Source of the DNA: Cordilura impudica
Lineage: Eukaryota > Arthropoda > Insecta > Diptera > Scathophagidae
Assembly (NCBI GenBank): GCA_963682025.1
Contig: OY821517.1
Coordinates: 231,937,678 to 232,001,677 of the forward strand
Length of the DNA stretch: 64,000 bases
Direction of reading: 5' to 3'
Both the position numbers and the translations under genes were made by a program. Shown in pieces: positions 14,691 through 45,268 of this stretch. The notes beneath the pieces are model-generated. The model worked only from the letters and a program-made list of their open reading frames with translations. It searched no databases and was not told the DNA's origin. The first letter of the stretch is position 1. Each line of letters opens with the position of its first letter.

Positions 14691-15270
14691 TCGCACACGT
14701 GTGTTTACATCCACAGGATGTACGCATTCGTGTGTACCCAAGACCTTCTAGAAGGCCTTAGTTGTGTACCTATACACTCACCCACAGGGTGGGTTTATGG
14801 GTGTGGGACTAAGGCCTTCGAATGGCCACCAGTCCATGGCTGTTTGGAGCCATACTGGTAGTAGCTTTGCTACGAAGTCTGACCGGAGGCTATATATTTA
14901 TATATATATCTGGTACCACGGGAAGTCAGAGCCCCTGGAATCTTGATTCCAGCTGACTTTCGGGTACGGCCCCTTGGGGAGTATCGTGGTGGCTGTGGTT
15001 TATACCCAAATCGCGGGGAGAGCATAGCTCGATGTGGAGTTGCATTCAACCGGGTGCTGTGACCCTAGAACAGCAGAGGTGTGTAAGGTAGGCCTCGACT
15101 CCCCACCAAGGAGTGGGATTTGTTGCCCAAATGCACAAATCTTGAATTGGTACCGGAGTGTAGTTAACTACACAATGGGGCGGTGGTCGGCGCATATTCC
15201 GATCCAGTGTTCAGAGCACCGTGAGGTTATGTCAACGAGACGGGTACTCACGTTAAACACAAGAGACTTC
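14691..15270 (+). other. R1-like element 3' untranslated region
   Basis: About 580 bp without a credible gene. It is much richer in G+C than the surroundings and contains several short self-complementary stretches, such as the CACACGTGTG palindrome just after the stop codon and CTTCTAGAAG near 14746. Neither a poly(A) tail nor a simple-repeat tail is visible before the gypsy A LTR at 15271. In R1-clade elements the 3' UTR is bound by the reverse transcriptase to start target-primed reverse transcription; that role is inferred from the family. Confidence 0.55.
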
Positions 15271-15730
15271 TGTCCCCCTTAATATATACAAATTGTCAGT
15301 TGTGTTTAATATATAAAATGAGAGAGTGTGGTAGGTATGTAGGTGTGAGAGTGTGGTGGGTATGATGTGTGAGAGATATGCAATTAAATAAGTAAATATG
15401 TTGGAGGTATAGTAACCACTATACCACCACCACCGGTAAAATATTTAATTCCTTTCTACAAAAACAATGTCCCTTATGTTAGGCGGTTTGACATTTTTTT
15501 TATACTAACAATGGGAAAAAAAATAGCACATGGTATTCTTGTGTATTTTTAATGTTAAAAAAAAATTCACTTCAAAATAAACGATTTACTTCATACTGAT
15601 TATATGATATATCCATTACTTAAAATTACAATATATTATTCAAAAAAATAAAAATAAAAAGACCTTCCTGGGCGATATCGGATTTGTGTGGGCGAAAACG
15701 AAATTTTTTTTGTTGACTTTCGTCATCACA
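15271..15730 (-). repeat. gypsy A 3' LTR (460 bp)
   Basis: Plus-strand sequence begins TGTCCCCCTTAATAT and ends GACTTTCGTCATCACA; the same block recurs at 37098-37539. Because the internal coding sequence reads on the minus strand and ends to the right of this copy, this is the 3' LTR. It carries about 18 bp (ending CCACCACCACC, near 15415-15435) absent from the other LTR. Confidence 0.88.
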
Positions 15731-19200: not shown

Positions 19201-19283
19201 ACTTTCAATGGAGTAAAAAGTTTTTTTTTGGTTGGTTTGTATACAAAAAAAAAAAAAAAAATAATAATAAAAGCATAAAAAAA

Positions 19284-19481: not shown

Positions 19482-19595
19482 AAGTTAAAAAATTTGAATA
19501 AAGTTAAAGTTAAGAAGTGGTTTTAAAAAAAAAGAAAAATTTTTTTTTTCTGTCGCGCACGTGTGAACTAAGTACTTGCGTGGGTAAATCATTTT

Positions 19596-20224: not shown

Positions 20225-20427
20225 AATCATTAAAATCAAATCAAACAAAATTACAAGTAAATTTTAAATGAGAAAATTTTTGTTTTAAAAGAAAAAGTAA
20301 ATAAAATATATAATGTTATATATAGATAAGAAAAATAGAAAGAATGTTATTATTTAAGAATATATAAAAATAAAATTTGAAAACAAGATTTTTTTTTTGA
20401 AAGTCATTATTTCTGATAGATACAATA
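20225..20427 (+). other. A/T-rich spacer before gag
   Basis: About 200 bp of A-rich sequence between the short ORFs and the first ATG of gag. No further ORF or repeat is visible. The gag start may be elsewhere in it if a non-ATG or mutated start was used. Confidence 0.5.
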
Positions 20428-21536: not shown

Positions 21537-24500
21537 ATTAGACACAAAAAGAATATTTAGAATATCATCAAATCTTAGGAACTACATCGAGTTGAACATA
21601 ATTGACACAAATCATGCACTGACATTTTTAATAGACACAGGAGCAGATGTCTCTTTGTGCAAACAAAATTTTTTTTACCGTTATGATGTAGATTCGAATG
21701 ATGACTGTTGTTTAACAGGGATATCAGGAGAACAAGTTAGATCTATTGGTTCCACTGAAATGAAAATAAATATAAATGACATGACAATAAAACATAAAGT
21801 GCAATTGGTGGAAAATGATTTTCCAATAAATACTGACGGAATCTTGGGTAGAGATTTCCTGTCAAGATTCAAATGTAGCATAGATTATGATAAATGTATA
21901 CTAACATTTATCACAAATAATGAAAATATAATCATTCCTATACATGACGATATAGTTGACATAAATCACATAATAATACCGCCAAGAAGCGAAATTATAG
22001 TACCTTTTAATATACATAGATATAGAAGAAGACAAAGTTATCATGAAAAAAGAGATCATTGAAGGTGTGTATTTGGCAAACACAATAATACCAAAAGAGG
22101 GTAAAAAGCACGTGAAAATTCTTAATGTGACAAATGATCAAATAACTATCAGAAATCTTAGAGTGGAAACGATGCCGCTAGAGAACTATGAAATTATCGG
22201 GGTTGAAAGACAAGAAGATTGTAGTTCGTATCCAGAAAAGAGATTTATGAAATTATTGAAAAGTTTGGATTTGAATAATGCGGACAAAGAGTGTCAATAT
22301 GAGCTGGAACAAATTATAAGAAAGTATCAACATGTATTCCATTTGGATGGCGAAAAGTTGACTACAAATAATTTCTACAAACAGTCAATTACTTTACTCG
22401 ATAATAAACCGGTATATATAAAAAATTATCGTTTACCTCATGCTCAAACAAATGAAATAGATTCCCAAGTACAAACGTTATTAGATGATGGAATAATAGA
22501 ACCATCAATAAGCCCTTATAATGCTCCTTTATTATAAGTTCCAAAAGGGGAACACATCGATTTAAGAAAATGGAGACTAGTAGTAGATTTCAGAAAATTA
22601 AATGACAGAGTCGTCAATGATAAATTCCCATTGACAAGATTGGACGATGTCTTAGACAAACTAGGCAGAGCAAAATATTTTTCAACGTTGGATATGACAA
22701 GCTCATTCCATCAAATAGAACTAGATGGAAAATCACGTCCTTATACTGCTTTTTCAACGACAAATGGTCATTACCAGTATACGAGACTACCATTTGGTTT
22801 GAAAATATCATCTAACAGTTTTCAACGAATGTTGACAATAGCTTTATCAGGCTTGGATTCTGAAGCATTTCTCTACGTTGATGATATAATTATTTTCGGA
22901 TGCAGTTTGAAGCATCATAATGCAAACTTGGTAAAAGTTCTTGATAGATTGACCAAATACAATTTAAAATTAAATGCAAATAAATGCTGTTTTCTGAAAC
23001 CTGAAGTTGTATATCTTGGTCACTTAATAACTTCAGAGGGTATAAAACCAGATCCTGGTAAATTTAACGCGATACATAAGTATCCAATACCTAAAAACGC
23101 CGATGATGTGAGAAGATTCGTTGCGTTTTGTAACTACTACAGAAGATTTATTAAAAATTTTGCGAATATAGCAAGTTGTTTAAACGAATTACTGAAAAAG
23201 GGAACAAAGTTTGAATGGACAGAGTAACGTCAATCTGCTTTTGATACATTAAAGCAGAAACTGATAAGTCCACCAGTCCTACAATATCCAAATTTCGACA
23301 AACCTTTTATTTTGACAACCGATGCATCTGACTTTGCACTCGGAGCGGTTTTGTCACAAGTTGAAGTCGGTGTAGATATGCCAATATCGTACGCAAGTCG
23401 ATCTTTGAATAAGCATGAAAGAAATAAACCTGTAATAGAAAAAGAACTACTTGGCATACATTGGGGCATACAATTCTTCAGACCCTATTTGTATGGTAGA
23501 AAGTTTATAGTGGTAACTGACCACAGGCCACTAGTAGCTTTATTTTCACATAAGAACCCGAGCTCAAAATTGACAAGAATACGTTTAGAGTTATCAGATT
23601 ATGATTTTGACATAGTTTATAAAAAGGGAATGAACAATACTAATGTAGACGCACTTTCCAGAATTAATCTGGACTCAGATATACTAAAGACAATGATACC
23701 TCCAGGGATCGACGAATCCGTAAGAAAAGCATTGGTGATTACAAGAAGAATGAAAAACAAGGAAATTAATGAAAAAGCTAGCAAGAATAGAGTTAAGGCT
23801 ACAAGGAAAAGTGATACAGCTAAAGATGAGGAAAAGATAAATGTGACAGCCGACACGGAGTCTGATCAACTCGTGATATGGGACTGTACATCAATAAATG
23901 ACATAAAGCGCGCGAAGAGGATAAAGTTTAAATTAGACACAAGGTGCACAACACAGATGAAAATTGAGGACGATAACAGTCTCAATGAAATGGCCATAAG
24001 ATGTAGCGATAATCCATACTATTTAGAAAGTATATTGGAGAAACTACCATCGGTATTAGAGAAGTTGAATTACAAAAGTTACGCTCTCGAGCAGGGTGAT
24101 GACATATTCAACATAGTGACACAAGAAAGATTCAAAGCAATCATAAACAGAAGCAAAGGAACTGACGTCAAAATATTACTATACAGAAATCCCCAATACA
24201 TAGAAAATGAAGATAGAAGAAAACAGTAAATGGAAGCTTATCACAATACACCATGCGGAGGACATTTTGGAATTAGGAAAACGCTACTCCGTTTAAAACA
24301 AAGATACATATGGAAGAATATGTATAAAATGGTAAAACAATTTATAAGAACGTGTGATCTTTGCCAAAGGAACAAACAGGTCAGACACACGAAAGAACCA
24401 TTCGAAAAGACTGACACACCATGCCAAAGTTTCGAGACCATAGTAATCGATACAGTGGGTCCACTGCGACCATCAGAAAATTTCAGATACATACTTACCA

Positions 24501-25184
24501 TGCAATGTGAGTTGACGAAATATGTAATAGCTTGCCCGATGGAAACTAAGGAGGCAAAATCTGTTGCTAAGGCACTGATTGAGAATGTTATCCTGAAATA
24601 CGGATTATTTAAAGCATTGAAATCGGACAAGGGGACTGAATTTACAAATCAACTAACGGAGGAGATATGTGAATTGTTGAAGGTGGAACAAAGATTTTCA
24701 ACCCCTTATCATCATGAAACACTTGGAACTGTTGAGAGAAATCACAGAGTTTTAAATGAATATTTTCTATCCTTTGTTGATGATGATAATTGGAATTCAT
24801 GGATACCATACTATACATTCGCATACAAATTGCCGAATTTACCCGGTGACAATATACTAAACAATAATAAAATATACAATCTTGAAAATTACGCAAACGA
24901 ATTAAGAATTAGGTTAAAATATTCTTTGGACAATGCTAGAAGAATTATAGAAAAAAATCAAGACAAAAAGAACAGAAGATTCAAAGATCAATAAGAATAG
25001 CATAATGTTAGAAGTAGGGGACTTAGTATTAATAAAAGTAGGAAACAGAAAAAAGAGTGAACCACCCTACGATGGACCCTATGAAGTAGTGGCTATAAAA
25101 AATTTAAATGTAGACATAAAAATCAATGGTAAAATAAAAACTGTACATAAAAATTTATTAAAGAAATATTATATAAGAACATAA
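21289..25184 (+). pseudogene. 412-like pol (protease-RT-RNase H-integrase), broken
   Basis: Protease: FLIDTGADVSLC with GILGRDFLS. RT: LDMTSSFHQIELD, RLPFGLKISS and the active-site YVDD at about 22875. RNase H: TTDASDFALGAVLSQ and VTDHRPLVALF. Integrase: zinc finger H..H..CDLCQRN (24240-24370) and the DDE residues in VIDTVGPL, KSDKGTEF and GTVERNHR; C-terminal module at 25005-25184. Lesions: a frame change near 22043-22062, in-frame TAA at 22535, 23225 and 24227, and a frame change near 24992. About 20 residues seem lost in the integrase at about 24820 (FAYKLPNLPG lacks the usual linker). A charged spacer of about 190 residues separates RNase H from integrase, as in 412. Confidence 0.85.
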
Positions 25185-25518
25185 AATACTTTGTAAACTC
25201 ATAAGAATATACAATAAGAAAACTTATAGAACAAAATATGTATATAAATGTAAACAACGCAACCACTAATATCATAAGAAATATGAATAAGTAAACATAA
25301 ATATCTTAAAGTGTAACAAACAAAAATATATTAAAATATCATAAACGAAAATATCTTAACATATCATAAATAAAAATATGTTTAAAATACAAAAAAAAAT
25401 ATAATACAATGTATTACAAAAAAAAAAAAAATCAAATTACAGAATATTTACATTTAGTTAGAAAAATCCCATATTTTATGTAAACAAAAATTATTAGATT
25501 TTTCTTGAGGATAAGGGT
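25185..25518 (+). other. 412-like 3' untranslated region and polypurine tract
   Basis: A/T-rich sequence with repeated ATATCATAAA-type motifs and no gene. It ends GAGGATAAGGGT directly before the 3' LTR, the likely polypurine tract. There is no room or coding signal for env. Confidence 0.65.
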
Positions 25519-26239
25519 TTTGCATATGCGGCGTATTCACATACGTAAGCAGCACGAATAAAGTGCCAATAACTAAAGCATGTAAACAAACAGACCTACA
25601 TATGCATACACGTATATCGACTAGCGACTGAATTGGGTAAAATAAAACATATCCAATTGGTATTTGGGATAGGACAAGCGCGTATAGCAAATGACTCAGT
25701 TTGTTCGTTTGTTTGTTTGACTGAGCGGGTTAATTTACAGCGCGTTGAAATCGAATAGAGTTGGTTGACATGTAGAGCAACTAGATTTGATTTCATATGC
25801 AAACCGAATACAATACACTTGTTGGTGTACCGTATTGGTCTGCACTTTAACCAAGTACAAATTCCACTCGTTGTTTGGAGTTGTACTTTATGTATGAGTA
25901 ATGACAAATTATAGAGCTAGGAACCACACCCAAATATCCATGATCGCCTGGTACGATAATATATATTAGTAGTAAGCAAAACTAATTTAAGAGAGAGAAT
26001 ATGAAATATAAACATGTAAAATACTTATGGAGTGACTTTCGGAAAGTCACTCACTTACACAATACAATTTCATACCCATTTGTAAATATATAAGCAGATT
26101 AAAATTGAAAATAAAGATTAAGTTCTAACTTCGCTCTTGGAGCGTCAACACCAAAACTGATGTTTCTTTTATTTTATCCTGCGGTAACAACATCATAAGA
26201 AGACTATCATTATATGTCGAATCCTGTAAAATCATTATA
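25519..26239 (+). repeat. 412-like 3' LTR (721 bp)
   Basis: Same length as the 5' LTR and nearly identical; differences include TATGCGG for TATGTGG at the start and GACTTTCGGAAAGTC for GACTTTCAGAAAGTC in the palindrome. It is followed by the duplicated target GGTCT at 26240-26244. Confidence 0.9.
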
Positions 26240-26760: not shown

Positions 26761-29700
26761 GTAGTGTCTCCGTTGATCCTGTGCAGCTCGACTCAGTTGA
26801 TTCCGCACGATTTCGAATAATTGCTTTAGTTCATTTTCCATATCCTTGTCAAGGTTCCTGGGAACAGCTCGTCAAAGAGGGCCTTCGGTAAACGTGGTTC
26901 TCGGCCCTGAGTCAAGTAGGCTGGGCTAAAACCAGTAGAATCGGATGGGCTTGTGTTTATGGCCAAGCTAATTTCGGGGAGATAATCATCCCATTTGTTG
27001 TGTTGGTTTTTAGCGGGCAATCATTGTTTTGATTATGCGATTAGCTCGCTCGGTGCGATTCTCCTGGGGACAATGGGGTGCTGTAAATTGTTGTCGGACC
27101 CCAATATCTTATAGATACATCTGCAGGATTCGGCTAGTGAACTGGCTACCGTTATCTGAAATGAGTACTTTGGGAGTTCCAAATCATGCTAGGATTCTTT
27201 CCCGGAATGATTTCACCACACTTTCTGCAGTGGCCTTACGAAGCGGTATCAGCTCCACCCATTTGGAGAACCTATCGAAGAGTACAAGTAGCATAGAATT
27301 CCCATGCTTTGTCCGAGGTAAGGGGCCCACGAAATCGGCACATACTGTCGCCCATGGTTCCTCTGGTATGGTTATGAGCATTTCGCCTGCCGGTGCGGTT
27401 TGGCAAGTTTTGTATTTTTGGCAAGACCGGCAACCTTTTACATAGTTTGATATATCACGCAGCATCCCTGGCCAATAATACCGATTACATATTCTGTTGA
27501 TAGTTTCCCTGGTGTCCAGCTGCAGGTTGGCTGTGATTTTCGTGTAAAACCCGTTGGCGTAACGGGTTAGCAACGCATAATTTCCAGGGTGTGCTATCCT
27601 CGTTGTTAGATTGCCTAGGGATATGTCGAAGCAGTTGTGAGCCTACAATCATAGAATCGGCGAATTTCTGTGGGTTTTGTTTAACTTCTGCCAGTCGTCT
27701 TTGATTCCATTTGCATCCTTGGACCGTAGGGGCATCTTCTATAGCTCGGTGGAGGTGCTCTATGGGGCTGCGGGACAACGCGTCCGCTACTACGTTTTGT
27801 TTCCCTTTCCTATATTGCACCGAGAAGCTATACTGTTGTAATTCCAACGCCCATCTGGCCAGGCGGCCGGTCGGATTATCTATGGTGCTCAACCATTTTA
27901 AAGAAAGGTGATCAGTGATGACTTGAAAGTGATAACCTTCGAGATAGGGTCGCATTTTTCAGATACCCCAAATAAAGGCAAGGCATTCCTTTTCTGTTGC
28001 TGAATAATTCTTTTCGGCTCCATTCAGAGCTCGACTGGTGTAAGCTATTACTCGTTCTGTTTCATTAAAATTTTGTGTCAATACTGCTCCTAGGCCATGG
28101 TCGCACGCATCTGTTTGTAGGACAAATGGTTGGCTGAAATCCGGACACGCTAGTACTGGTGCTTGGGTCAATTTCATTTTTAATATCTCAAAGGACGTTT
28201 GTTGTTCCTCCGTCCACTTCCAGTGTTTTCCCTTCTTCAATAAGGTAGTGAGTGGTTGTGCTATGATTGAAAATTCTGGCACGAATCTCCTGTACCAGGA
28301 CGCTACCCCGCGAAATCGTCTTACCTCTCGAACACAGGTTGGTGGTGTCATGTCCTGTATGGCAGCGATCTTATCTGGGTCAGTGTGTATTCCTTCTTCA
28401 CTGACAACGTGGCCGAGATATTTCGTCTCCCTTTTGAATAACTCGGATTTCTCTGCATTTATTTTTAGGTTGGCCATTCTAAGTCTCCGGAATACCTCTG
28501 AGATGTTCCTCCAGCGTTTTGCCTGTAACAATGATATCGTTGAGGTAAGCAAAAGCGAAAGGTTCTAATTCTGGTCCGATGACACTGTCTAATGCTCTCT
28601 GGAAAGTAGCTGGGGCAGAGTGCAACCCGAATGGCATCACGCGCCATTGGTTCAATCCTCTTCCAGCAACGGTGAATGCGGTATATCGTCTGCTGTTTTC
28701 TTCTAATGGGATCTGCCAATACCCGTCATTCAGATCGAGACTACTGATATATTTGGCCTCTCTGAGTCTGTCCAGAATGGTTGAAATGCGCGGCAAGGGA
28801 TATGCATCTAGCTCAGACTTGGAGTTAAGGTGACAGAAATCCATACATAGCCGCCATGTACCGTTTTTCTTCTTTGCAAGTGCTATTCGGGATCTATAAG
28901 GACTTCTGGAAGGCTCAATATAACCATTTGCTAGTAAATCGTTGATTTTGGTATCGATGATGGCTTGCATGGCTGGATTTCGTGGTGCGTATCGTAGTTT
29001 GAAGGGTCGATCATCGGTCATCACGATACGGTGTTTCGCTATCGTGGATAGACCTTGTAATTCTTGGAATTTATCCAGCTCGTTTTTAATAAAAGTATTT
29101 ATTCTTTCTTGTTCTTTAGAAAGTTTTTCACTTACCGTTATAGCGAGGCATTGTTCACCTTCCCTAGGGCATGGTGGTGGGGTAGCCTGCAGTTCCATTC
29201 GTGTGAGGGGAAGTGTTGAGGCCGTTGTGAGTGAGTGGGCATGGTGACGTCTGCTTCCTTGGACGCTAACTTGGGTATCGGAGCTATCTGCCGGAGAAAA
29301 CTGATGCCATAGTCCTGCACAGATTAACTTAGCTCCACATTTCCTTAGAAAATCGAGTCCCAGGAGTATTTCTTCGGAGGCTTCCGGTATGATGAGAAAT
29401 TCCAAGGTGAGGTGTTGGTCACCAAATTTTATTCTGGCTTCTGTCGCCCAGCTGATCTGTTTTTGTGTACCGTCGGCCAGAGTCACATATGCGTCATGGG
29501 GGTGAGGATGGCAATGGTGTTTGATGCTGTTAGCTAGAGTTGCGCTTATAAAACAGCTTGTGGCGCCTGTATCGATGGTAGCGGGGACTATTCGTTCCCC
29601 GAGCTGTATCATCGCCACAAGCCGAGTTGGTTCACATATAAAGGTCGTTTTTAGTTCAGGGGTTCCTCTTCCTGTGGGTTCGTACCCCCCCCCCCTGTTC

Positions 29701-29870
29701 GGTACTGGCACTCGATCGTTTCCCGAGCGTCTGCAACATTGAATGGTTCGCACACCGCGGCGTCCGCAGTCCCAACAGAATATCACCGGCTCGTTACGGC
29801 AACTCGTTCTGAAGTGGCCATCTTGGCCACAGCGGCGACACATGGTATCGGGGTTGAAATTCTTTTTCAT
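26761..29870 (-). pseudogene. gypsy A NC-protease-RT-RNase H-integrase, decayed
   Basis: Minus strand from 29870: zinc knuckles CRRCGQDGHFRTSC and CWDCGRRGVRTIQC, protease TIDTGATSCFIS with ILLGLDFL, then RT with SSLDLNDGYWQIPL. The RT active site reads YLND where the family has YLDD, removing a catalytic Asp. RNase H: QTDACDHGLGAVLTQ and ITDHLSLKWL. Integrase: zinc finger H..H..CRSCQKY, FVGPLPRT, LISDNGSQF and a TERANR glutamate. Breaks: frame changes near 28500, 27520, 27010 and 26850, and in-frame stops at 27959, 27184 and about 27110. Two of the TGA stops replace expected Arg codons. Upstream of 26761 it continues at 16140. Confidence 0.8.
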
Positions 29871-29872
29871 TG

Positions 29873-30200
29873 TTACCTTATTATCTGGTTTTGCTGTGGA
29901 GGATGTGATGCTGTTGGTATACTTTCGAGGTCTTCTGCCATTTCCACTAAGTCATCTAGGTTGGCAAAATCCTTCCTTCGGATATACCACAAGTACTCAG
30001 GCAGGGCATTTCGAAAAATCCTCTCTAGTTTCTGAACTTCTGTATAGGTGGTTCGTCGTAATAGGTTTTGCAATGCTAGCATATATGTCTTGAAACATTC
30101 TTTGGGCCGTTGTTGGCGTTTTCGAATTTCGTCTTCCAGTCGTTCAAAATATCTTGGTGATAGAAAGAATTTTAGACAGTCTTGCTGAAACTCGTAGCAT
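29873..30200 (-). pseudogene. gypsy A gag fragment
   Basis: Minus-strand frame beginning at about 30200 with FLSPRYFERLEDEIRKRQQR, RPKECFKTYMLALQNLL and then FRNALPEYLWYIRR and FANLDDLVEMAED. This resembles the C-terminal capsid part of gypsy Gag, before the zinc knuckles at 29840. A frame change separates it from the knuckles. Upstream of 30200 similarity to a capsid stops abruptly, so the Gag N-terminus is missing or replaced. Confidence 0.6.
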
Positions 30201-30516
30201 TTCTAGTCGACAGATAATTTAATAATTTAATAAGAATTTGGTTGCTATGTATGATTTTTTTTTTTCTGAATTCACTTTACAAAATTTTTTGTTAATATCA
30301 ATAATGATTATTCAGCAAGAACTGTAACGACGAGTTTCCTCTGGTTGCTGGGGTATAACTCGTGGGGTAGGGTTCGTCACAGAAATTTATACTTACGGTG
30401 ACAGAGAGCAAAGGAAAACACCTGTATTTATTGTGGTATTACAATTTTTATTTAAGAGAAGAGAAATAGAGGATGCTAATTCTAATTTGTTTAATTATAT
30501 AAAAAAATAACTTACT
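30201..30516 (-). other. gypsy A leader, non-repeated part
   Basis: No gene seen. It contains the palindromic segment at 30323-30381 (separate entry) and A/T-rich flanks between gag and the hairpin array. Confidence 0.5.
30323..30381. repeat. 59-bp imperfect palindrome, TG...CA
   Basis: Begins TGTAACGACGAGTTTCC and ends GGGTTCGTCACA. The two arms share TGT(A/G)ACGA and AACTCGT in inverted order around a GC-rich centre. It looks like a short foldback or an LTR-end remnant; function unknown. Confidence 0.5.
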
Positions 30517-31533
30517 GGTAGACCTGGAACAGCACTACCGTGATACGCCGAACCAATGTCTAATAGGGAGACCTGGAACAGCACTCCCTTTAGTTATCTA
30601 GTGAAAAAAAAATAAAGTTACTGGTAGACCCGGAGCAGCACTACCGTTTAATCATATAAAAATAACTTACTGGTAGACCTGGAACAGCACTACCGTTTAA
30701 TCATATAAAAATAACTTACTGGTAGACCTGGAACAGCACTACCGTGACCCGATGGAAGACCTGGAACAGCACTTCCGAAAAAACAAAACACATGCAGAGA
30801 ATAATTTATATTGTTATTTTGTATTTACTTAAGTGTTGCGGCTTAATAGGGAGACTTGAAAACACTCCGTTATAATCACGCTATGGAAGACCAAGTACAG
30901 CACTTCCAAAACACTTTCATAAATAATTTATTATTGTTATTTGTTATTTATTCAAGTGTTGGGTTTTACTAGGGAGACCTTGAACAGCACTCCGTTATAA
31001 TCACGCTATGGAAGACCAAGTACAGCACTTCCAAAACACTTTCATAAATAATTTATTATTATTATTTATTGTTTATTCAAGTGTTGCGATTTTATAGGTA
31101 GACCTTGAACAGCACTCCGTTATAATCACGCAATGGAAGACCAAGTACAGCACTTCCAAAACACTTTCATAAATAATTTATTATTATTATTTATTGTTTA
31201 TTCAAGTGTTGCGATTTTATAGGGAGACCTAGAACAGCACTCCGTTATAATCACGTTATGGAAGACCAAGTACAGCACTTCCAAAACACTTTCATAAATA
31301 ATTTATTATTATTACTTATTGTTTATTCAAGTGTTGCGATTTTATAGGGAGACCTTGAACAGCACTCCGTTATAATCACGCAATGGAAGACCAAGTACAG
31401 CACTTCCAAAACACTTTCATAAATAATTTATTATTATTATTTATTGTTTATTCAAGTGTTGCGATTTTATAGGGAGAACTTGAACAGCACTCCGTTATAA
31501 TCACGCAATGGAAGACCAAGTACAGCACTTCCA
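30517..31533. repeat. gypsy A leader array of hairpin-forming repeats
   Basis: About 18 copies of a short inverted repeat with loop ACCTGGAACAGCA (variants ACCTTGAACAGCA, ACCAAGTACAGCA). Proximal units at 30517, 30566, 30623, 30672, 30721 and 30754 include a 49-bp period (30623, 30672, 30721). From 30850 to 31533 there are six units of a 125-bp repeat, each with one GGAG...CTCC and one TGGAAG...CTTCCA hairpin; the second type starts at 30884, 31009, 31134, 31259, 31384 and 31509. Stems differ between copies but stay paired: GGTAG/CTACC, GGGAG/CTCCC, GGAAG/CTTCC. A further copy, TGGAG/CTCCA at 36996-37018, is the one split by the LOA insertion. Only 31097-31118 has clearly lost pairing. The array is in the leader of gypsy A RNA (minus strand). 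Confidence 0.9.
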
Positions 31534-31587
31534 AAACACTTTCATAAATAATTTATTATTATTATTATTTTTATTTATTCACTTAAT

Positions 31588-31598
31588 ATGGAGACCTT
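31588..31598 (+). repeat. LOA copy 1 target-site duplication, left
   Basis: ATGGAGACCTT, repeated at 36995-37005. It is the left half of one hairpin unit of the gypsy A array. Confidence 0.85.
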
Positions 31599-31943
31599 CC
31601 ACCACCATGAGTAACAATCTAGTCGCGATGCGGTGGCTTAAGTGCACTGCGGCTCCTTACTTGATGCTAGTAATGGAAGAGGTTTTACTGTATCAGTACC
31701 ACTTCCTAAACCTGTGTCAAGTTCGGAACCTTGAAGGTGCTCGACTAAAGGTTACTCACCCCTAATCCGGAGTGTAACGCGACCCGTGCTTATCGGATGG
31801 TTTGCAGTCAGGGGTAACCGACTGTATTTTAACGGAGCCTCACTGATACCTGGGCACCTCAGTGAGTAGGCAGAGGCAGTGGGCCGCCCTTGCTGCGTTA
31901 CTGGGGGCTATGACGCGGTCGACATAATTTTTCCCCTGCACTC
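31599..31943 (+). other. LOA copy 1 5' UTR
   Basis: 345 bp, moderately GC-rich, without a long ORF. Internal promoters of non-LTR elements normally lie here; I see no motif clear enough to mark. Confidence 0.55.
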
Positions 31944-33341
31944 GTGGGAACCAAAATGAATTCTTGTAAAACAAAAAAAAACAAAAATCGAGGCTCTGCC
32001 TCACAGTCCGCTGCTAGTTCATCTAGCAGTTGTCCGAAGGCTAAGACCCAGGGGTCTGGCCATTTAGAAAACGCTGCGACCTCTGGTCAAAGCTCTAGCG
32101 GGTTGGGGTCCGTTGTCAGTCCGACTACAATCTCCATCACTGGCAGCAAACCCATGAAGGCTATGGACAAATCCGGTCATCTTGCGAATGCAGCTAAGGA
32201 GGGGTCCAAGTCTGGTAAGACTGGGGTCAATCACGTCCGTCCGTCAAAGGCGAAATATAATCAGAGGAGACTATGCCTTAAGATTATCGATAGGCTAGGC
32301 AAACTCGACCAAGCGAAGCTGTCTGATAGACAGAGAGAGTCGCTCACATGGGCTAAGAAGGTCACTGAAAAACAGGACCTCTCAGCTAAGACTAGTGTAC
32401 CTGATAAACAGGTTGCTAGTACCTCGAAGGCGGGTAAAAGGCTGCGCTCGCCAGATGAGAAACCATTACCTAAACGTACTAAAGTGGCCGGCAACGCTGT
32501 GCCGAAGTCGTTTAGTCAGGTTGTCAAAGACAACCTTGTAATGGCTATCATTAACAGGGGAGATGAAGATGGCACTATCCCCAAGGACAAGTGGAGTTAT
32601 GTGGAGGCTAAATTAGCCGAAGTATTCTTCACTGTCCTTGAGGATATGCCAGGTCCACCTCCAACGTGCCCCGAGGCAGGCTGGCACCAAGGCCGTGCTA
32701 AGCTGGTGGCTTTTGCTGACCAACGCTCATTATCCCTTTACAGGGCTGCCGTCAGCAAACTAGGAGAGCTCTGGCCGGGAGCAAAACTGGATGTTGTGCA
32801 CAAGCATGACATCCCGTCCCGACCCAGAGCGCATGCTTGGCTTCCGACAACTCCTGGGGATGCGGAATCCATGCTAAAGATGCTGAAAGTCTGCAATCCT
32901 GATCTTCCAATGCACAATTGGAAGATTGGTAGATTTGGTGATACAGAGGGGGCACGTCGGCAGGTAACACTGTTACTTAATGCCGAATCCCTCCCGCGTT
33001 TAACCGAGACAAACAACATCATTTCCTACGGATTTGGACAGATTATGATCAAGGTCTATAAAAGCGATCAGGGACCAATCCCAGAGATCGTCAAACCTGT
33101 AGAGAAGTCTGCTGGGGAGGGGACCTCTGGTGAAGCTCAAGCTGAGGTGGGTTCCCACACAGCTATGGAGGAAGATGGGTACTTAACATCTGATTCTGAG
33201 CTGTTAGGGGATGCTACTGGCTTATTCTACGAAGACCTCCTTGAAAGCACGGAGGACGAAGCCGAAATCACGGTGGTGAAGATGGATGTGCAGGCAGTTG
33301 CAAATGAAGCGGCTCCTACAGATAAATCTTCACCACTGTAA
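31944..33341 (+). CDS. LOA-like ORF1 protein, 465 aa, intact
   Basis: Basic, Ser/Lys-rich N-terminal 190 residues (SQSAASSSSSCPKAK; KAKYNQRRLCLKIIDRLGKL), then a globular domain of about 190 residues starting at PKSFSQVVKDNLVMAIINRG and including GAKLDVVHKHDIPSRPRAHA and MHNWKIGRFGDTEGARRQVT. The layout resembles the DUF4780-type ORF1 of dipteran LOA elements, thought to bind element RNA; no CCHC knuckle is visible. The acidic C-terminus (EDEAEITVV) overlaps ORF2 by 56 bp in another frame. ATG at 31944 is the first in the frame after the 5' UTR. Family assignment is from pattern memory. Confidence 0.8.
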   Translation: MGTKMNSCKTKKNKNRGSASQSAASSSSSCPKAKTQGSGHLENAATSGQSSSGLGSVVSPTTISITGSKPMKAMDKSGHLANAAKEGSKSGKTGVNHVRPSKAKYNQRRLCLKIIDRLGKLDQAKLSDRQRESLTWAKKVTEKQDLSAKTSVPDKQVASTSKAGKRLRSPDEKPLPKRTKVAGNAVPKSFSQVVKDNLVMAIINRGDEDGTIPKDKWSYVEAKLAEVFFTVLEDMPGPPPTCPEAGWHQGRAKLVAFADQRSLSLYRAAVSKLGELWPGAKLDVVHKHDIPSRPRAHAWLPTTPGDAESMLKMLKVCNPDLPMHNWKIGRFGDTEGARRQVTLLLNAESLPRLTETNNIISYGFGQIMIKVYKSDQGPIPEIVKPVEKSAGEGTSGEAQAEVGSHTAMEEDGYLTSDSELLGDATGLFYEDLLESTEDEAEITVVKMDVQAVANEAAPTDKSSPL

Positions 33342-36300
33342 AGCAGCAACGGCTGCATTGCTGGTTCGCCTGACGACAGGCGGAGTAGACACAGTCTTCA
33401 TCCAAGAGCCCTGGGTTTGTGGTGGCAGGGCTTGCGGATTGAAGACTCCTAATTATAAGCTGCTCGTCGCTAAGGATGAAGGTACACCAAGGACCTGCAT
33501 TTTGGCGAGGAACAGTTTAAATATTTTCTTGTTATCTAATTTCAGTGACAGAGATGTAACAGCGGCTAGCCTGGAGTTAGATGGTAAAACAATCTGGCTC
33601 GCCTCCGCCTATTTTTGCGATCCTGGGCCTATTCCCCCGGACAGCGTGGCAAATCTGATCCGGAAGGCCGAAGGGACTGCACACCAACTGGTGCTGTGCT
33701 GTGACGTCAATCCGCATCATCCGATCTGGGGAAGTACGGACATAAACGAAAGAGGTGAGTTGCTTTTTGAGTTTTTACTTAGTACTAGCCTGTATATATG
33801 TAACAAGGGAAATGAACCGACCTTTGTGACTAGTATTAGAAGGGAGGTTCTTGACGCTACCTTTGTATCAGATACACTATTTGATAAAATTGATGGTTGG
33901 AGGGTGTTGGATGACCACTCCTTTTCTGACCATCGCTATATCGAATTCTTACTTAGAGAAAAGAACCCAATGGAGAGTGTCCCCAGGAATCTGAAGAGGA
34001 CAGATTGGGTTAAGTATAGGAAAACCTTTGCTGGGTTATTGGAAACAATACCCTTAACCGAGCCGCGCAATTCTGCGGACATTGATTGTCTTCTAGATCA
34101 TATTACGACGGTTTTTAACAAGTCTTTAGATTCTTCTTGCCCAGTGGCAAGGCCTAAGGGCAAGAAGAAACCACCATGGTGGTCTAGCGAGCTGCAGCAG
34201 GGTAGAGACTCCTGCAAAAAACTCTCTAACAAGGCAAAGTCTTCAAGAGCGGACGAGGATTGGTCGGCGTACAAGCTGCAGCTTAGGGCCTATAAGAAGA
34301 AGATTAGAACGGCAAAATGCGATTCTTGGAAAAAATTCTGTGATAACATAGAGGAAGTTTCCGAGGCATCCAGGCTGCGAAAGGTTCTGGCTTCTACCCC
34401 TCACACATTAGGCTATTTGAAGGATCCAGTGGGGCTGTGGACCACCTCCAGTGGATAATCACTTAGCTTGCTACTGGACACCCATTTTCCGGGCAATTCT
34501 CATACGTCACTACAGGCGTTGGAATACTCTGACGCTAGCACGGCGGACATTGCTTCGGAGATAGTTAATGTACCAACATTGACCTGGGCGATTAAAAGCT
34601 TCAAACCTTACAAATCTCCGGGACCTGACGGTATCATTCCAGCTGAATTGCAGCATGTGTCGGACTACATTTCCCCCTGGCTATGCAGTCTTTTCACTTG
34701 CTGCATAAACACAGCGTATATTCCTTTGAAATGGAGGGAGACAAGAGTGGTGTTCATTCCAAAAGCTGGAAAGAGCTCACACACTGTCCCAAAGGACTTC
34801 AGACCAATAAACCTATCATCGTTCCTATTGAAGACAATGGAGCGTATGATAGACTCTTATTTACGTAGAATTATTGACCCTAAACTGCTATCAACGAGGC
34901 AACATGCCTACAGCAAGGGAAGGTCAACTGAAACAGCTCTACACGAGCTTGTAGGTACCATCGAGAAATCGCTCTCGGCAGGAGAATACACTATGACAGC
35001 CTTTTTGGATATAGATGGGGCTTTTAACAACATCACACCGGACTCGATAATAGCGGCACTATCTAGTCTAGGAGTGAATTCTGTGATCATCTCATTGATT
35101 GGAAATCTGCTTGTCAATAGGCGGATAACGTCTAAACTGGGAACGTCGGAAATATCCTGATTTGTGAACAGGGGAACGCCACAAGGTGGCGTTCTATCAC
35201 CACTTCTCTGGAACTTGGCGCTAAACCCAGTGCTAGTATCGTTGGAGGGGCAAGGCTGCAGCGTAGTCGCATATGCTGACGACGTGGCCATGGCCGTAAA
35301 TGGGAAGTTTCTATCTACAATTAGAGATATCCTGCAACGGGCTCTCACAGAGCTATCTATCTGGGCAAGGGGTTGCGGTCTGGGGGTTAATCCGACCAAA
35401 ACGGAACTTGTTCTTTTCACTAGGAAGTATAAGATCCCTACCTTCGATCCCATTTCTCTCAACGGCACTGAAGTCGTCTTCCCTGATGGAGCCAAGTATC
35501 TTGGCGTATTCCTGGACAGGAAGCTGAACTTCAGACGGAATTTGGAGGAGCGGGTGAAGAAGGCGACTATAGCTTTATACTCCTGTAAGAAGGCCATTGG
35601 TAAGCGATGGGGCTTTAGTCCGAAAATTGCTCACTGGATCTATACAGCGGTGGTCCGTCCAATACTCCTGTACGGAGTCATCGTCTGGTGGCCTGCTTTG
35701 GAGAAGGCCACCAATAACAACCTTCTCGCAAGGGTACATAGAATGGCTTCCATGTGCATCACTGGAGCCCTTCGTACTACACCTTCGGATGCCTTGAACA
35801 TCCTATTACACCTAATACCACTGGACATATTAGGGAAGCAGTCGGCGGCCTCATCGGCCATTCGATTAAGAAGCACACTACAATGGCGGGGCTACAATTG
35901 TGGCCACGGGATGATCCTGAATGACAGGAACTTGCCATTGAACGTGGATTACACTACTCCAAGGAGCGTATTTGAACGTCACTACTGTACACTAATACCG
36001 ACCAGGGAATCTTGGTCTGGGAGGACACCAGGCAGTAGGCGTTCCGTAAATTTCTATACTGACGGATCGAAATTGTGCGGTCAGGTTGGTTTTGGAGTCC
36101 ATTCAGGGGAGCTTGGACTAAATCTGGCTCGAAGGTTACCAGACCACTGCAGTGTATATCAGGTAGAGGTACTGGCAATAAAGGAGGTTGCTGACTGGTT
36201 GGGTCGGAATATTCTGTCTACGACCGCAGTCAACATCTATTCTGATAGTCAAGCCGCGGTAAAATCCATGCGATCAATGTTCCTGAAAACGAGAACCGCC

Positions 36301-36897
36301 CTTAGCTGCCGCACGTCCTTAAATGAGATGGCCAAGCAGTTCGACATCAGGCTCATATGGGTCCCAGGGCACAGGAACATACCGGGAAACTGCAAAGCGG
36401 ATGAGCTGGCAAGACAGGGTACTACCTTACAGGTTCCAGCGGATTTGGAATGTGTTGGTACACCCCTGGAATCGTGCAAGCTTGAACTTCGGCTTCGCAC
36501 CGCTGGCATAACGAATAACAGATGGGTTAATGGATTAACGTGTAGGATCACAAGACAAATCTGGCCTGCTCTGAATCGAAAGCGTACAAATGCGCTATTA
36601 TCACTCTCCCGTGGGGAGATCTCAACGGTAGTTGCTGTTGTTACTGGGCACTGCCTTATAGGGAGACACGCTGAGCGCCTTAAGGTCTCGTCAAATGATT
36701 TCTGTCGTAGCTGCTTGGATGTGGAGGAGGTAGAGAGCGTAGAACACTTCCTCTGCCACTGCCCGGCGCTATCCAGAACTAGATTACGGACATTGGGATC
36801 GCCGTTTCTTCACGATCTCTCTGACCTCTCAAACGTGGAAATTTCACATCTTAGGGGCTTCATTAGAAGCTCGAGCTGGTTCTTCGGTGGGGACTGA
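33286..36897 (+). pseudogene. LOA-like ORF2 (APE-RT-RNase H), two nonsense codons
   Basis: One reading frame interrupted by TAA at 34456-34458 and TGA at 35158-35160; no frameshift. Endonuclease: FIQEPWVCGGR, CDVNPHHPIWG, and FSDHRYIEFLL (33286-33960). RT: KSPGPDGIIPAEL, DFRPINLSSFLLK, TAFLDIDGAFNNI, NRGTPQGGVLSPLLW and VAYADDVAMAV. RNase H: NFYTDGSKLCG, NIYSDSQAAVKSM, WVPGHRNIPGNCKADELA. A CCHC-like cluster, CRSCLDVEEVESVEHFLCHC, precedes the end. Copy 2 has GAA and CGA at the two stop positions, so both stops are mutations of this copy (G-to-T and C-to-T). All catalytic motifs are otherwise present. Confidence 0.9.
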
Positions 36898-36994
36898 GGG
36901 GAACACCCATTCGTCCCTTGGTATCACAACGGACCCCAGAGTCTAAGTGTGCTGGTCCTTGGATCAGCAGCCACTTCCAACCTAACCTAACCTA
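36898..36994 (+). repeat. LOA 3' UTR with (CCTAA)n tail
   Basis: A short 3' UTR ends in three CCTAA units at 36981-36995, the last base shared with the target duplication. Copy 2 ends in four units. CCTAA is the complement of the insect telomeric repeat TTAGG. Confidence 0.85.
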
Positions 36995-37005
36995 ATGGAG
37001 ACCTT
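36995..37005 (+). repeat. LOA copy 1 target-site duplication, right
   Basis: ATGGAGACCTT, identical to 31588-31598; it continues into the rest of the interrupted hairpin unit, TGAACAGCACTCCA. Confidence 0.85.
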
Positions 37006-37097
37006 GAACAGCACTCCACTATTATCCACCAGAACTTACCTTGCTACTTGCTACGATCGTCTCGACGGCTACTCGCTAACTAACTTCTTTTGTCTAC

Positions 37098-37539
37098 TGT
37101 CCCCCTTAATATATACAAATTGTCAGTTGTGTTTAATATATAAAATGAGAGAGTGTGGTAGGTATGTAGTTGTGAGGGTGTGGTGGGTATGATGTGTGAG
37201 AGATATGCAATTAAATAAGTAAATATGTTGGAGGTATAGTAACCAACGGTAAAATATTTAATTCCTTTCTACAAAAACAATGTCCCTTATGTTAGGCGGT
37301 TTGACATTTTTTTTATACTAACAATGGGAAAAAAATGGCACATGGTATTCTTGTGTATTTTTAATGTTAAAAAAAAATTCACTTCAAAATAAACGATTTA
37401 CTTCATACTGATTATATGATATATCCATTACTTAAAATTACAATATATTATTCAAAAAAATAAAAAAAAGACCTTCCTGGGCGATATCGGATTTGTGTGG
37501 GCGAAAACGAAATTTTTTTTGTTGACTTTCGTCATCACA
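37098..37539 (-). repeat. gypsy A 5' LTR (442 bp)
   Basis: Matches 15271-15730 with a few substitutions and one about 18-bp difference. It sits upstream of the leader on the minus strand. The sequence following it on that strand (GTAGACAAAAGAAG) has no TGG at the expected primer-binding position, so the primer is unclear. Confidence 0.85.
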
Positions 37540-37588
37540 ACTTTCCATATTCCATTTTTCATTTTCCATTATCCATTTTTCAATTTTA

Positions 37589-37620
<32 letters not shown>

Positions 37621-37847
37621 TTCAATTTTCATTTTTAGTTTTTCATTTTCCATTTTTAATTTTTCAATTTTCATTTTCCATTTTTCAATTTTCATTTTCC
37701 ATTCTGCATTTTCCATTTTTCATTTTCCTTTTCCATTTTTAATTTTTAAATTTTCATTTTCCATTATTCATTTTCCATTTTCCGTTTTTCAATTTCCATT
37801 TTCCATTTTTCATTTTCCATTTTGCGTTTTCCATTTTTCATTTATCA

Positions 37848-37878
<31 letters not shown>

Positions 37879-38300
37879 TGCGTTTTCCATTTTTCATTTC
37901 TCAATTTTCACTTTCCATTTTTCAATTTCATTTTCCATTTTCCATAATGCATTTTCCATTTTTCAATTTTCTTTTTCATTTTCCATTTTTCATTTTCTAT
38001 TTTCTATTCTCCAGTTTTCATTTTCTATTTTCCATTTTACATTTTTCGTTTTCCATTTTCCGTTTTTTATTTTCCATTTAAAATTCTCCATTTTTCATTT
38101 TCTATTCTCCATTTTTCATTTTCCATTTACCATTTTTCATTTTTCAATTTTCTTTTTTCATTTTCCATATTTCATATTCCATTTTTTATTCTCCATTTTT
38201 CATTTTATACTTTACATTTTCCATTTTCCGTTTTTCATTTTCCATTCCCCATTTTCCATTTTCATTTCCCATTTTTCATTCTCATTTTTCTTTCATATTG
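37540..38300. repeat. 7-bp satellite, ATTTTCC/ATTTTTC units
   Basis: About 100 degenerate heptamers, mainly ATTTTCC and ATTTTTC often in alternation, with variants such as ATTTTGC. The period is 7, as in the satellite at 1-11609. It starts directly at the end of gypsy A and ends at about 38300 where unrelated sequence begins. Seven-base periodicity produces long heptad-like open frames that are not genes. Confidence 0.9.
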
Positions 38301-42622: not shown

Positions 42623-42905
42623 TATTAAATTTTTTATTATATAATATACAATTCGTTTAACTGTTTTAATTCAATCAGTATATTTAGTTAATATACTAGC
42701 AATAACTTAAAATAGTAACATCATTGTGATGTGTCTTCAAAAATCAAAAGAGTCTAAGTGAACGTGTGTTGCTGTCGGTCTATCTATTGTAACTGATCAT
42801 TCAAAGTTATTATGTATGTACATAATGTATGTACATGATGTATGGCCATACAAAAGAGAGTAGAAAAACTGCATTCCATTTGCACAGTGGTGCGAGTACT
42901 TAACA
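42623..42905 (-). repeat. mag-like 3' LTR (283 bp)
   Basis: Plus strand TATTAAATTTTTTATTAT ... GAGTACTTAACA; minus strand begins TGTTAAGTAC. Directly to the right is the polypurine tract (TTAAGGGG on the minus strand, 42906-42913). Confidence 0.88.
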
Positions 42906-42909
42906 CCCC

Positions 42910-44523
42910 TTAACGCCCGGATGCAGAAAAGAATTGTGGAACTTTTCTATAACGTTTCGAACGACGTGGTGTGTGTTGAGTGGGCGAAGATCTTGTATTC
43001 GTAGGAGGCTGGTGGCTAGGCGGCGGAGATTGTGGGGAGCTTGATGAAGTGTTTGTTGCTGTGTTTGGTGGTGGTGTTTGCGCTGGTAATGACGTGGACA
43101 AAGATTCAACATCGCTTTCAACTTCCTCTTCGGATTTATCAGCTACATCAATATTTGACTCAGCAATCGCATCGTTACAACTTCTTGGAAAAATTAGCTC
43201 ACAATCTATGGTAGAAGTTCTACTGCGAATTTGGTCTAAATGACGTTTTAATATACGATTATCTTGAATACGCACAGTGTAGGACAATGGTCCAGTTTGT
43301 GATTGTATATGAGCCGGTATCCACTTTGGGCCTGAGGCATAATTCCGAATCCATACAAGGTCTCCTTCTTTAAATGATTCTTTTACGGGTAAACTTTCGA
43401 TGGTATTTGACAATTCATGCGGATGAAATTTGTCAAAGTAGCTTTTTAGCTGTCGATTAAACAGAAGTTCAGCAGGTGAGCGCCCAGTCGTAGCATGCGG
43501 GCTTATGTGTTGATTAAATACAAAACGGATAAGATCCAATTCAATATTCGAATTGCCTGGCATTTTTTTTAAATAATCTTTTGCTGTCTGCACCATACGT
43601 TCAGCCTGTCCATTTGACGATGGATGGAAAGGAGCACTTCTGACATGGCCTATCAAATTGTTCTTCATAAAGCTTTCAAACTCAGCTGACGTAAAAGCCG
43701 TTCCATTATCCGATACGATGGCGTCAGGTAGGCCATGCGTTGCAAAAAGCGATCGCAATGATCTAATTGCACATTGTGATGACGTGGATTTGACTATGTG
43801 CACTTCCAACCATTTGGAATATGAATCAACCAATAGGAAAAACAATTTACCTTGAAATGGACCGGCGAAGTTAATATGTAGCCGCGACCATGCGGTCTGA
43901 GTATTTTCCCAAGTGCGAGCTTGTGCCTGAGTTTTTTCATGGCGAGTTTCTTGGAACTGAATACAAAGTTAAACTGAGTTTTCGATTTGAGAATCCATAT
44001 TTGGCCACCACACATAGCTTCTTGCCAAACCCTTCATTTTAACTATCCCAGGATGTCCAGCGTGTAGAGCATGAAGAATGGCTTGACGACTAGGTGAAGG
44101 GATAATAGTTCTGTTACCCCACAACAGGCATCCCTTGAGTGAAGTAATCTCGTTACGGCGCATAAAATAGGGATATGCTTGATCATCGCGGGAAATAAAA
44201 CTTGGCCATCCCCTTAACGCCCAGCTGAGTATTTTAGAGAGAAGTGGATCTTTTGCTGTTTGCTTGGAAACTTTTTTTGCGTTGACAATTTCATTGCTGG
44301 CTAGTTCAATCATGAGAACTTCATCTTCCTTCGTTTCTAACTGCTGTTCTGTTCTGTCTGGTAGGCGGCTTAAGCAGTCGGCATTCTCCATTTTCTTGCC
44401 TTCTCTATAGACGAGATCAAAATCGTAGGCGTTCAGAAAAATGGATCGGCGCAGCATAATGGTAGATATTATGGTTGGATTTGGTTTTGCCGTGCAAAAA
44501 ATTCCCAAAAGTGGCCGGCCAAA
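42910..44523 (-). pseudogene. mag-like pol, RNase H end and integrase
   Basis: Continues from 53927 after the BEL insertion with GRPLLGIFCTAKPNP and AYDFDLVYREGKKMENADC (RNase H end), then integrase. The zinc-finger histidines H..H are present (ILHALHAGHPGI), but the second cysteine of the CxxC pair reads F (LCIQF). TAA at 43969-43971 breaks the frame there. The first catalytic Asp of the DDE triad appears as Asn (HINFAGPF where HIDFAGPF is usual); the others are present (IVSDNGTAF; SSNGQAERMVQ). The C-terminal tail is Pro/Ser/Thr-rich and basic (TPRRSKRYRKVPQFF), typical for mag-like elements. An inactive integrase. Confidence 0.82.
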
Positions 44524-45202
44524 TGTCCTGTACAAATGGTCAGAATTTTACTTAAAACGTCGGTTGCCAATGTTATGGCAGTGTAGATGTGTTGTAAGGA
44601 TAAAGTTAATGTGGATTCAACCCCGACACATAAATCGGTGCTGACACTAAGCTTTAGTCCCTTTTTTTTTCCTTCAAGCACTTGTAACTTGAAAGGTGAT
44701 GGCCAGTAAATAAAACAATTAGATATGCTGTATTACTAGACTGATTCTTTATTTTGTTTGGGTTTTTATACCCAAAACAATAATCAAAAATGCTTAATAC
44801 TAAATAGTGTAATTAATGTGTTTGTTATTGTATTTTGGTTAACAGTATAAAAAACGCTGAAAACAAAATAATAATAAATGTGTTTTGTTGTTGTGTATTG
44901 ATACTTAAATTATTATAAATTAAAACAGTGTATTTTGTTGTTGTATCTTCAACCATAATAATGCTTACTAGTGTCGTTAGTCATAAATGGTTAAATGATT
45001 TCACAGACGGAATGACCTATATTTTGTTTTATTCTGATTAAGCATTATTATGTTTGGTAACAATAAAATATGCGGAAGTAAATAAACGTGACTTAATAAT
45101 AATTACAAAATTATATGTGTCAAATAAAATATAAACAAACTGAATTTAAAATGTAGAATAACTAAAATAAAAACGTATGGTAGATTTCTTTGAAACTGGA
45201 CA
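44524..45202 (-). repeat. BEL 3' LTR (679 bp)
   Basis: Starts TGTCCTGTACAAATGG and ends GAAACTGGACA on the plus strand. The polypurine tract is immediately to its right (minus strand CGTGGGGGAGAA, 45203-45214). Confidence 0.9.
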
Positions 45203-45268
45203 TTCTCCCCCACGATGAACGGATGTTCAACAATTGATGTATTATAGTGATTGTTCCGTGGAGTGTAG

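What the first reader, a model, noticed from the sequence alone, without database searches (positions are those of the whole stretch)
30517..37018. Leader array of hairpins with a conserved loop and compensating stem changes
Seen directly: about 19 copies of a 22-25 nt inverted repeat share the 13-nt loop ACCTGGAACAGCA (or close variants). The bases on both sides vary together: GGTAG/CTACC (30517, 30623, 30672, 30721), GGGAG/CTCCC (30566), GGAAG/CTTCC (30754), TGGAAG/CTTCCA (six copies at exact 125-bp spacing from 30884), TGGAG/CTCCA (36996). Changing both arms together while the loop stays fixed is the pattern of selection on RNA (or cruciform) structure, not of plain tandem decay. The array lies in the leader of gypsy A, where packaging, dimerisation or translation signals of retroelement RNAs sit. 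Inference: a multi-hairpin cis element, maybe Gag-binding. One unit (31097) has lost pairing and 30850 is degenerate.
Basis: partly seen in the sequence, partly recalled or inferred. Interest (0 to 1): 0.78.

Follow-up and report, generated by a model that had tools for sequence, protein, structure and literature searches.

The report
Palindrome array in fly retrotransposon
A young but broken fly retrotransposon carries 19 copies of a short folded-back sequence between its promoter region and its first gene; most copies stay self-complementary while the DNA around the older copies has changed freely, so they look like a regulatory cluster, but one copy of the element cannot show whether RNA folding, protein binding or a copying quirk keeps them so.

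Summary
Nineteen related 21-25-nt inverted repeats lie at 30517-31533 and 36996-37018; the last is split by a 5.4-kb non-LTR element with an 11-bp target duplication. In 13 of 19 the five stem pairs are complete, in five 4 of 5, in one 3 of 5. The core is about 84% alike across representative units while flanks are at shuffle level. The array lies downstream of the promoter-like part of the 5' LTR of a young (3 mismatches in 443), internally deleted Ty3/gypsy element on the minus strand. 'Compensation' is real but thin: about three independent paired changes; re-pairing the six distinct stems does as well in 12 of 720 ways. Which strand folds is undecided. I favour a cis-acting stem-loop cluster in the transcribed LTR/leader (0.40) over a DNA-binding-site cluster (0.30) and neutral template switching plus duplication (0.25). 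Nothing supports Gag binding specifically. Sirevirus LTR palindromes and gypsy's Su(Hw) array are the closest known kinds. The decisive covariation test over other copies could not be run: the own-genome search did not complete, and two pattern scans of public collections gave only single, chance-like matches.

The parts
30517..30743 (-). A-type units 30517, 30566, 30623, 30672, 30721 (GGTAG/CTACC; 30566 is GGGAG/CTCCC); three of them in a 49-bp tandem
30754..30776 (-). B-type unit with the A-type loop (GGAAG/CTTCC)
30849..30869 (-). unit with degenerate, 2 nt shorter loop (GGGAG/CTCCG, 4 of 5 pairs)
30884..31533 (-). 125-bp tandem array: six identical B-type units (TGGAAG/CTTCCA at 30884, 31009, 31134, 31259, 31384, 31509) and five C-type units (30972, 31097, 31222, 31347, 31472; GGGAG, at 31097 GGTAG, with CTCCG)
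30910..31460 (.). AT-rich imperfect palindromes between the 125-bp units (AACACTT...AAGTGTT): 31035-31085, 31160-31210, 31410-31460 with 25-nt arms, 30910-30960 and 31285-31335 with 17- and 18-nt arms
31588..31598 (.). left target-site copy: the broken-off part of the 36996 unit
   Evidence: read
31599..36994 (+). non-LTR retroelement inserted into a unit (DUF4780 ORF1; endonuclease-like, RT and RNase H domains); not part of the array
36996..37018 (-). F unit TGGAG/CTCCA, first unit downstream of the promoter-like region on the minus strand; its 5' flank on the plus strand lies left of the insertion
37034..37039 (-). GTAAGT after GCAAG: splice-donor-like site (by motif only) between the promoter-like region and the array
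37097..37539 (-). 5' LTR start (TGTGATGACG) and U3-like part, same as 15270-15730; TATA-like stretch near its low end, by eye
   Evidence: 440 of 461 columns identical, 18 gap columns
27184..30202 (-). gypsy A: gag C-terminal part, protease, RT, RNase H, integrase start; gag N-terminus missing above about 30202
15270..15730 (-). truncated 3' LTR of gypsy A; cut before the part that would hold the array

Best explanation
A cis-acting cluster of stem-loop modules in the 5' LTR/leader of a fly Ty3/gypsy element. Two related hairpins (A/C type and B type), joined by AT-rich spacers that partly form a third palindrome, were multiplied by tandem duplication while the element lineage was active; pairing of the arms was largely kept by paired changes while most of the loop kept its sequence. 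Working model (inferred): the element's RNA, transcribed on the minus strand from the promoter-like region near 37100, carries the array as a row of local hairpins, and several copies together are read by a host or element protein that controls handling of the RNA (polyadenylation, splicing, export, translation or packaging). Shown: module, copies, core/flank contrast, placement. Inferred: transcription, folding in the cell, the binder, the step controlled.
For: Core 0.845 mean identity against 0.526 and 0.556 for flanks (shuffled flanks 0.564, shuffled cores 0.586) in 7 representative units, 6 with distinct cores: 0.835 against 0.515 and 0.552 (first made). Six distinct stems: 27 of 30 pairs Watson-Crick, 12 of 720 re-pairings as good; without the broken 31097 stem 24 of 25 and 2 of 120. 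On 15 distinct rows 0 of 500 shuffles reach the percentage paired or the covariation score, but most rows are tandem duplicates. The conserved core is not two-fold symmetric, as expected for a loop read by sequence on a stem read by shape. A bulged-U, wobble-rich inner stem (GCU/GGU) exists only on the sense strand and is in the minimum-energy fold of 11 of 19 units there; the six 125-bp B units fold at -10.5 to -11.3 on the sense strand against -5.4 to -7.8 kcal/mol, F with right flank only -7.4 against -5.2. LTRs differ at 3 of 443 aligned positions, so the unit types diverged before this insertion.
Against: Only about three independent paired changes. Other covariation measures are weak: as many pairs with changes on both sides in 22, 202 and 21 of 500 shuffles, as many pair types in 104, 305 and 129 of 500; partners slid by +3 also give 3 such pairs in each. 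The outer stem pairs better on the antisense strand. Four of five A units and 30754 prefer another inner stem (CTG/CAG), possible on both strands, so the sense-strand fold is not uniform. Single-hairpin z-scores are moderate (-1.25 to -3.18 over 14 tests, 4 with p 0.08 or more, one of 0.057). 88-90-nt unit pieces: z -0.48 to -3.71 on the sense and -0.30 to -3.20 on the other strand. In the folded 1113-nt array on the sense strand four of five A units pair at 0.01-0.44. In five 125-bp units the C hairpin varies at 3 of 23 columns, spacer 1 at 2 of 14; one change breaks the stem. No Rfam match. Nine ATGs on the sense strand fit poorly with a simple scanned leader.
Confidence: 0.4

Rival explanations
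1. A cluster of DNA-binding sites (enhancer or insulator type): roughly 20-bp conserved sites separated by variable AT-rich DNA, read as duplex by a host zinc-finger or similar protein; the palindromic arms are part of the site.
For: [quoted passage not shown] Core conserved, flanks random-like. 16 of 23 core positions invariant or nearly so. Strand preference of pairing is not consistent.
Against: A duplex site gives no clear reason for arms to change together while staying complementary (12 of 720); the core is not symmetric inside the arms. The Su(Hw) 12-mer with up to one mismatch is not in the array.
Confidence: 0.3
2. Neutral: a palindromic stretch multiplied by tandem duplication; template switching within quasi-palindromes (during DNA replication or reverse transcription) keeps re-perfecting arms, without selection.
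For: Template switching is proposed to create and maintain hairpins by compensatory changes (PMC8794818, abstract and passages). The 125-bp array also holds a third, AT-rich palindrome, as a palindrome-prone region would. The C hairpin accumulates changes about as fast as the neighbouring spacer 1.
Against: Does not explain why an asymmetric loop stays alike across unit types whose flanks are random-like. That paper itself calls the role in maintaining short stems 'less clear' and finds single compensatory changes not enriched over simulation.
Confidence: 0.25

Closest known systems
Sirevirus repeated motifs (RM) in LTRs (PMC2829016; passages and section 9 seen)
   Same: 8 to 32 copies per element of a short palindrome, some with a non-palindromic centre, clustered in the LTR of a retrotransposon (in nine of 13 elements also in the linker before ENV), mostly highly alike within an element
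   Different: Plant Ty1/copia elements; mostly a CGG-CCG core; shown upstream of the TATA box; one consensus per element. Here a fly Ty3/gypsy, different sequence, array downstream of a TATA-like stretch, several arm versions within one element
Drosophila gypsy insulator, 12 Su(Hw) sites in the 5' UTR (PMC2374998; passages seen)
   Same: Cluster of conserved sites separated by variable AT-rich spacers, upstream of gag in a fly gypsy element
   Different: Su(Hw) 12-mer absent from the array; no inverted-repeat arms in the consensus given there
Conserved Hairpin Site of fungal GalEa elements (PMC5445492; passages seen)
   Same: Conserved hairpin in the 5' non-coding region of an LTR element
   Different: Single site directly after the 5' LTR, in copia-type fungal elements without a PBS, different sequence
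Retroviral packaging/dimerisation stem-loops and R-region hairpins (recalled)
   Same: Short stem-loops in the 5' RNA region
   Different: No Gag-binding evidence; no 6-nt palindrome in any of the 19 loops, 4-nt ones in 8; no Rfam match; resemblance only

Membership tests
Ty3/gypsy LTR retrotransposon (the host element) | protease-RT-RNase H-integrase order with LTRs | tested here: met
   Pfam gag-asp_proteas/RVP, RVT_1, RT_RNaseH, Integrase_H2C2 in order on the minus strand; rve at E 6e-4, below its cut-off; LTR pair; named protein hits in Rhagoletis, Drosophila, Bactrocera, Glossina and others, 120 of 321 listed
Ty3/gypsy LTR retrotransposon (the host element) | tRNA primer-binding site after the 5' LTR | tested here: not met
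   no convincing match to 20 recalled tRNA 3' ends (best 11 of 14, inside U3); the gag N-terminus is missing too, so probably deleted in this copy
Sirevirus RM | plant Ty1/copia element with its palindromic RM, mostly CGG-CCG, in the LTR | tested here: not met
   Ty3/gypsy domain order with insect relatives; arms GGnAG/CTnCC
Su(Hw) gypsy insulator | repeated YRYTGCATAYYY sites in the 5' UTR | tested here: not met
   18 matches with up to one mismatch in the window, 16.7 expected, none inside 30500-31600 or 36990-37020
Known Rfam RNA family | match to a covariance model | tested here: not met
   0 matches at E up to 1 in 30000-37600
RNA structure under selection | significant covariation across independent copies | tested here: inconclusive
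   paralogous units of one copy only: 0 of 500 shuffles for two measures, 21-305 of 500 for two others; 12 of 720 on distinct stems
Retroviral-type Gag-binding packaging signal | binding by the element's Gag / need for packaging | not testable with these tools
   needs an experiment; gag is incomplete in this copy

The most novel reading that the evidence does not exclude
An R-region device of a fly gypsy element: a repeated module of stem-loops and AAUAAA-rich spacer, present at both ends of the RNA, in which the hairpins hide or present poly(A) signals and are bound cooperatively by Gag or a host protein, so that copy number of the array tunes RNA fate.
Probability: 0.08. Interest if true: 0.72.

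Novelty: new variant of a known kind. Interest (0 to 1): 0.38.

Why it matters
If real, it is a compact natural series in which loop and stem of one hairpin have been varied apart inside a single element, which makes RNA-versus-DNA recognition directly testable, and it would extend LTR palindrome clusters (described in plant Sireviruses) to fly gypsy elements. It also shows how tandem duplication inflates 'compensatory' evidence: most of the 19 units add no independent change.

Tried and rejected
Further copies: exact-pattern scans of viral contigs (17 loci) and genome contigs (77 loci) gave 94 loci with one match each, 2 of 94 with a fully paired 5-bp stem, none with two matches: taken as chance. 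A pol fragment found no relatives in viral contigs. A covariance model built from the units found, in 11600-64000, the 19 units it was made from; next best E 0.05 (a unit on the other strand) and 0.18 at 31671-31710.

tRNA origin: ARAGORN (bacterial settings) finds no tRNA in the window. Kissing-loop dimerisation: no 6-nt palindrome in any loop. Target preference of the non-LTR element for the hairpin: the 3' end of its second copy (61205 onward) lies next to other sequence; its 5' end is outside the window.

Three-way junction: AAGTGTT/AACACTT can close the B and C hairpins into a junction. In one search my pieces lacked one closing arm; with both arms, 6 of 6 isolated pieces fold so on the sense strand and 5 of 6 on the other, but in the folded whole array the closing stem has probability 0.00-0.15 on the sense strand, while the same arms pair between units (0.56-0.93). 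Not adopted.

I lowered my first choice from 0.42 to 0.40 because the sense-strand inner stem is in only 11 of 19 minimum-energy folds.

Papers seen: PMC2829016 passages and section 9; PMC8794818, PMC5445492, PMC12910113 and PMC2374998 passages; the others only as search listings. That I found no description of such an array in fly elements rests on these nine searches.
Full report
What is there. The window is most likely fly DNA: the best named relatives of the protease-RT ORF 28479-29951 are in Rhagoletis, Drosophila, Bactrocera and Glossina (120 of 321 hits listed, the top one unnamed, ants and beetles further down). Gypsy A runs on the minus strand: LTR start TGTGATGACG at 37539, gag-pol from about 30202 down to 27184, an integrase end and a purine-rich tract just above a second LTR at 15730-15270 (integrase end and tract by eye). 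The two LTR pieces agree at 440 of 461 columns, 18 being gaps, so 3 mismatches in 443: a young insertion. The 3' LTR is cut at 15270 next to a non-LTR element, before the part that would hold the array, so the window has no second copy of it.

The array. Nineteen units lie at 30517-31533 and 36996-37018. Five are A-type (GGTAG/CTACC, or GGGAG/CTCCC at 30566), seven B-type (GGAAG/CTTCC), five C-type (GGGAG, once GGTAG, with CTCCG), one F (TGGAG/CTCCA), and one at 30849 has C-type arms and a degenerate loop. Thirteen of 19 have all five stem pairs, five have 4, one (31097) has 3. The F unit is split by a non-LTR element, 31599-36994, between an 11-bp target duplication. The 125-bp tandem array holds B, C and a third, AT-rich palindrome between units.

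Is the module more than tandem decay? Yes at the older level. Across seven representative units the 23-nt core has mean identity 0.845, the 18-nt flanks 0.526 and 0.556, shuffled flanks 0.564; with the duplicate core left out 0.835, 0.515, 0.552, 0.559. Since the LTRs differ by under 1% in substitutions, this divergence arose while the lineage was active (inference). At the recent level, not clearly: in five 125-bp units the C hairpin has 3 variable columns of 23, spacer 1 has 2 of 14, the B hairpin 0 of 25; the remaining spacer shows 1 variable column in the four units that stay in register (read from the alignment), the fifth being out of register there.

Covariation. On all units (15 distinct rows) 91.0% of cells pair with the inner stem included, 87.8% for the outer six pairs on the minus strand and 91.1% on the plus strand. 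In each, 0 of 500 shuffles reach the percentage paired, the number of doubly changed cells or the covariation score; but the number of doubly changed pairs is reached in 22, 21 and 202 of 500 and the number of pair types in 104, 129 and 305 of 500, and sliding the partners by +3 also gives 3 doubly changed pairs. These shuffles ignore relatedness. On the six distinct stems 27 of 30 pairs are Watson-Crick and 12 of 720 re-pairings do as well; without the broken 31097 stem 24 of 25 and 2 of 120, the fewest possible because two stems share a 5' arm. By eye the independent paired changes are: T-A/A-T between A and B, T-A/G-C between 30517 and 30566, and the outermost pair between 30566 or C and F. 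In C units the 3' arm may be short of one base relative to A rather than substituted (by eye).

Which strand? On the sense (minus) strand a bulged U, a GCU/GGU inner stem with wobbles and a small loop appear in the minimum-energy fold of 11 of 19 units; four of five A units and 30754 fold with a CTG/CAG inner stem instead, on both strands or nearly so. The six 125-bp B units reach -10.5 to -11.3 on the sense strand against -5.4 to -7.8 kcal/mol. But the sixth pair is T-G on the plus strand in A units and 30754, and unpaired on the minus strand. Hairpin z-scores lie between -1.25 and -3.18 (14 tests, both strands). Folding the 1113-nt array piece gives, on the sense strand, pairing of 0.56-0.74 for the six B units and 0.93 or more for the four 4-pair C units, but 0.01-0.44 for four of five A units, 0.94 or more at 30849, and 0.56-0.93 for the AT-rich palindromes. 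Strand is undecided.

Setting. On the sense strand a donor-like AAG|GTAAGT (consensus recalled) lies at 37039 ahead of the array, and further GTAAGT motifs at 30719, 30670, 30515 and 30396. The region 30501-31598 has 16 AATAAA on the sense strand and 1 on the other, and 9 and 10 ATGs; six of the sense ATGs open the same 14-codon frame across the B hairpin, with one residue changed in one copy. Poly(A) signals fit an LTR R/U5 better than an internal leader, but they come with AT-rich tandem repeats. The gag of the 120 listed relatives aligns no higher than 30202, 12 N-terminal gag pieces match nowhere in 11601-64000 (best E 0.6), and no PBS was recognised: the 5' internal region is probably deleted in this copy.

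Reading. The evidence supports a conserved palindromic module cluster in the LTR/leader of a fly gypsy element. I put RNA stem-loops first because the core is asymmetric, arms change together and the sense strand offers extended folds in many units; a DNA-site cluster of the Su(Hw) or Sirevirus type is close behind; neutral template switching plus duplication is not excluded. Gag binding is a guess.

Noticed in passing
window 1-11608: 11.6 kb of a (TAATTTT)n heptamer array that runs up to the endonuclease-RT ORF (11592-14690) of a non-LTR element.
   Followed up: no
window 31035-31085, 31160-31210, 31410-31460: Third palindrome of the 125-bp array: 25-nt arms, 76% complementary, 1 nt between; B, C and this one make up most of the unit. 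Its arms can also close B and C into a three-way junction in isolated pieces.
   Followed up: partly
window 30920-31545, minus strand: Six copies of a 14-codon frame (MKVFWKCCTWSSIA, once ..SSIT) across the B hairpin, and 16 AATAAA in 30501-31598 on that strand against 1 on the other.
   Followed up: partly
window 31599-36994 and 61205-64000: Two copies of a non-LTR element, inverted to each other, 97-99% complementary where both are in the window; DUF4780 in ORF1 of the first; both end in a CCTAA-like tail.
   Followed up: partly
window 31671-31710: Weak hairpin resembling the unit (TGGAAG...CACTTCC) in the 5' part of that non-LTR element; E 0.18.
   Followed up: no
window 37542-38288: (TTTCCAT)n-like satellite starting at the outer end of the 5' LTR of gypsy A.
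   Followed up: no
window 18324-25819: Probable second LTR element on the plus strand: direct repeats 99% alike, RT between them.
   Followed up: no
window 42623-56882: Probable nested LTR elements: repeats 42623/56600 (98%) enclosing repeats 44660/53372 (99%) and a 1344-aa ORF.
   Followed up: no
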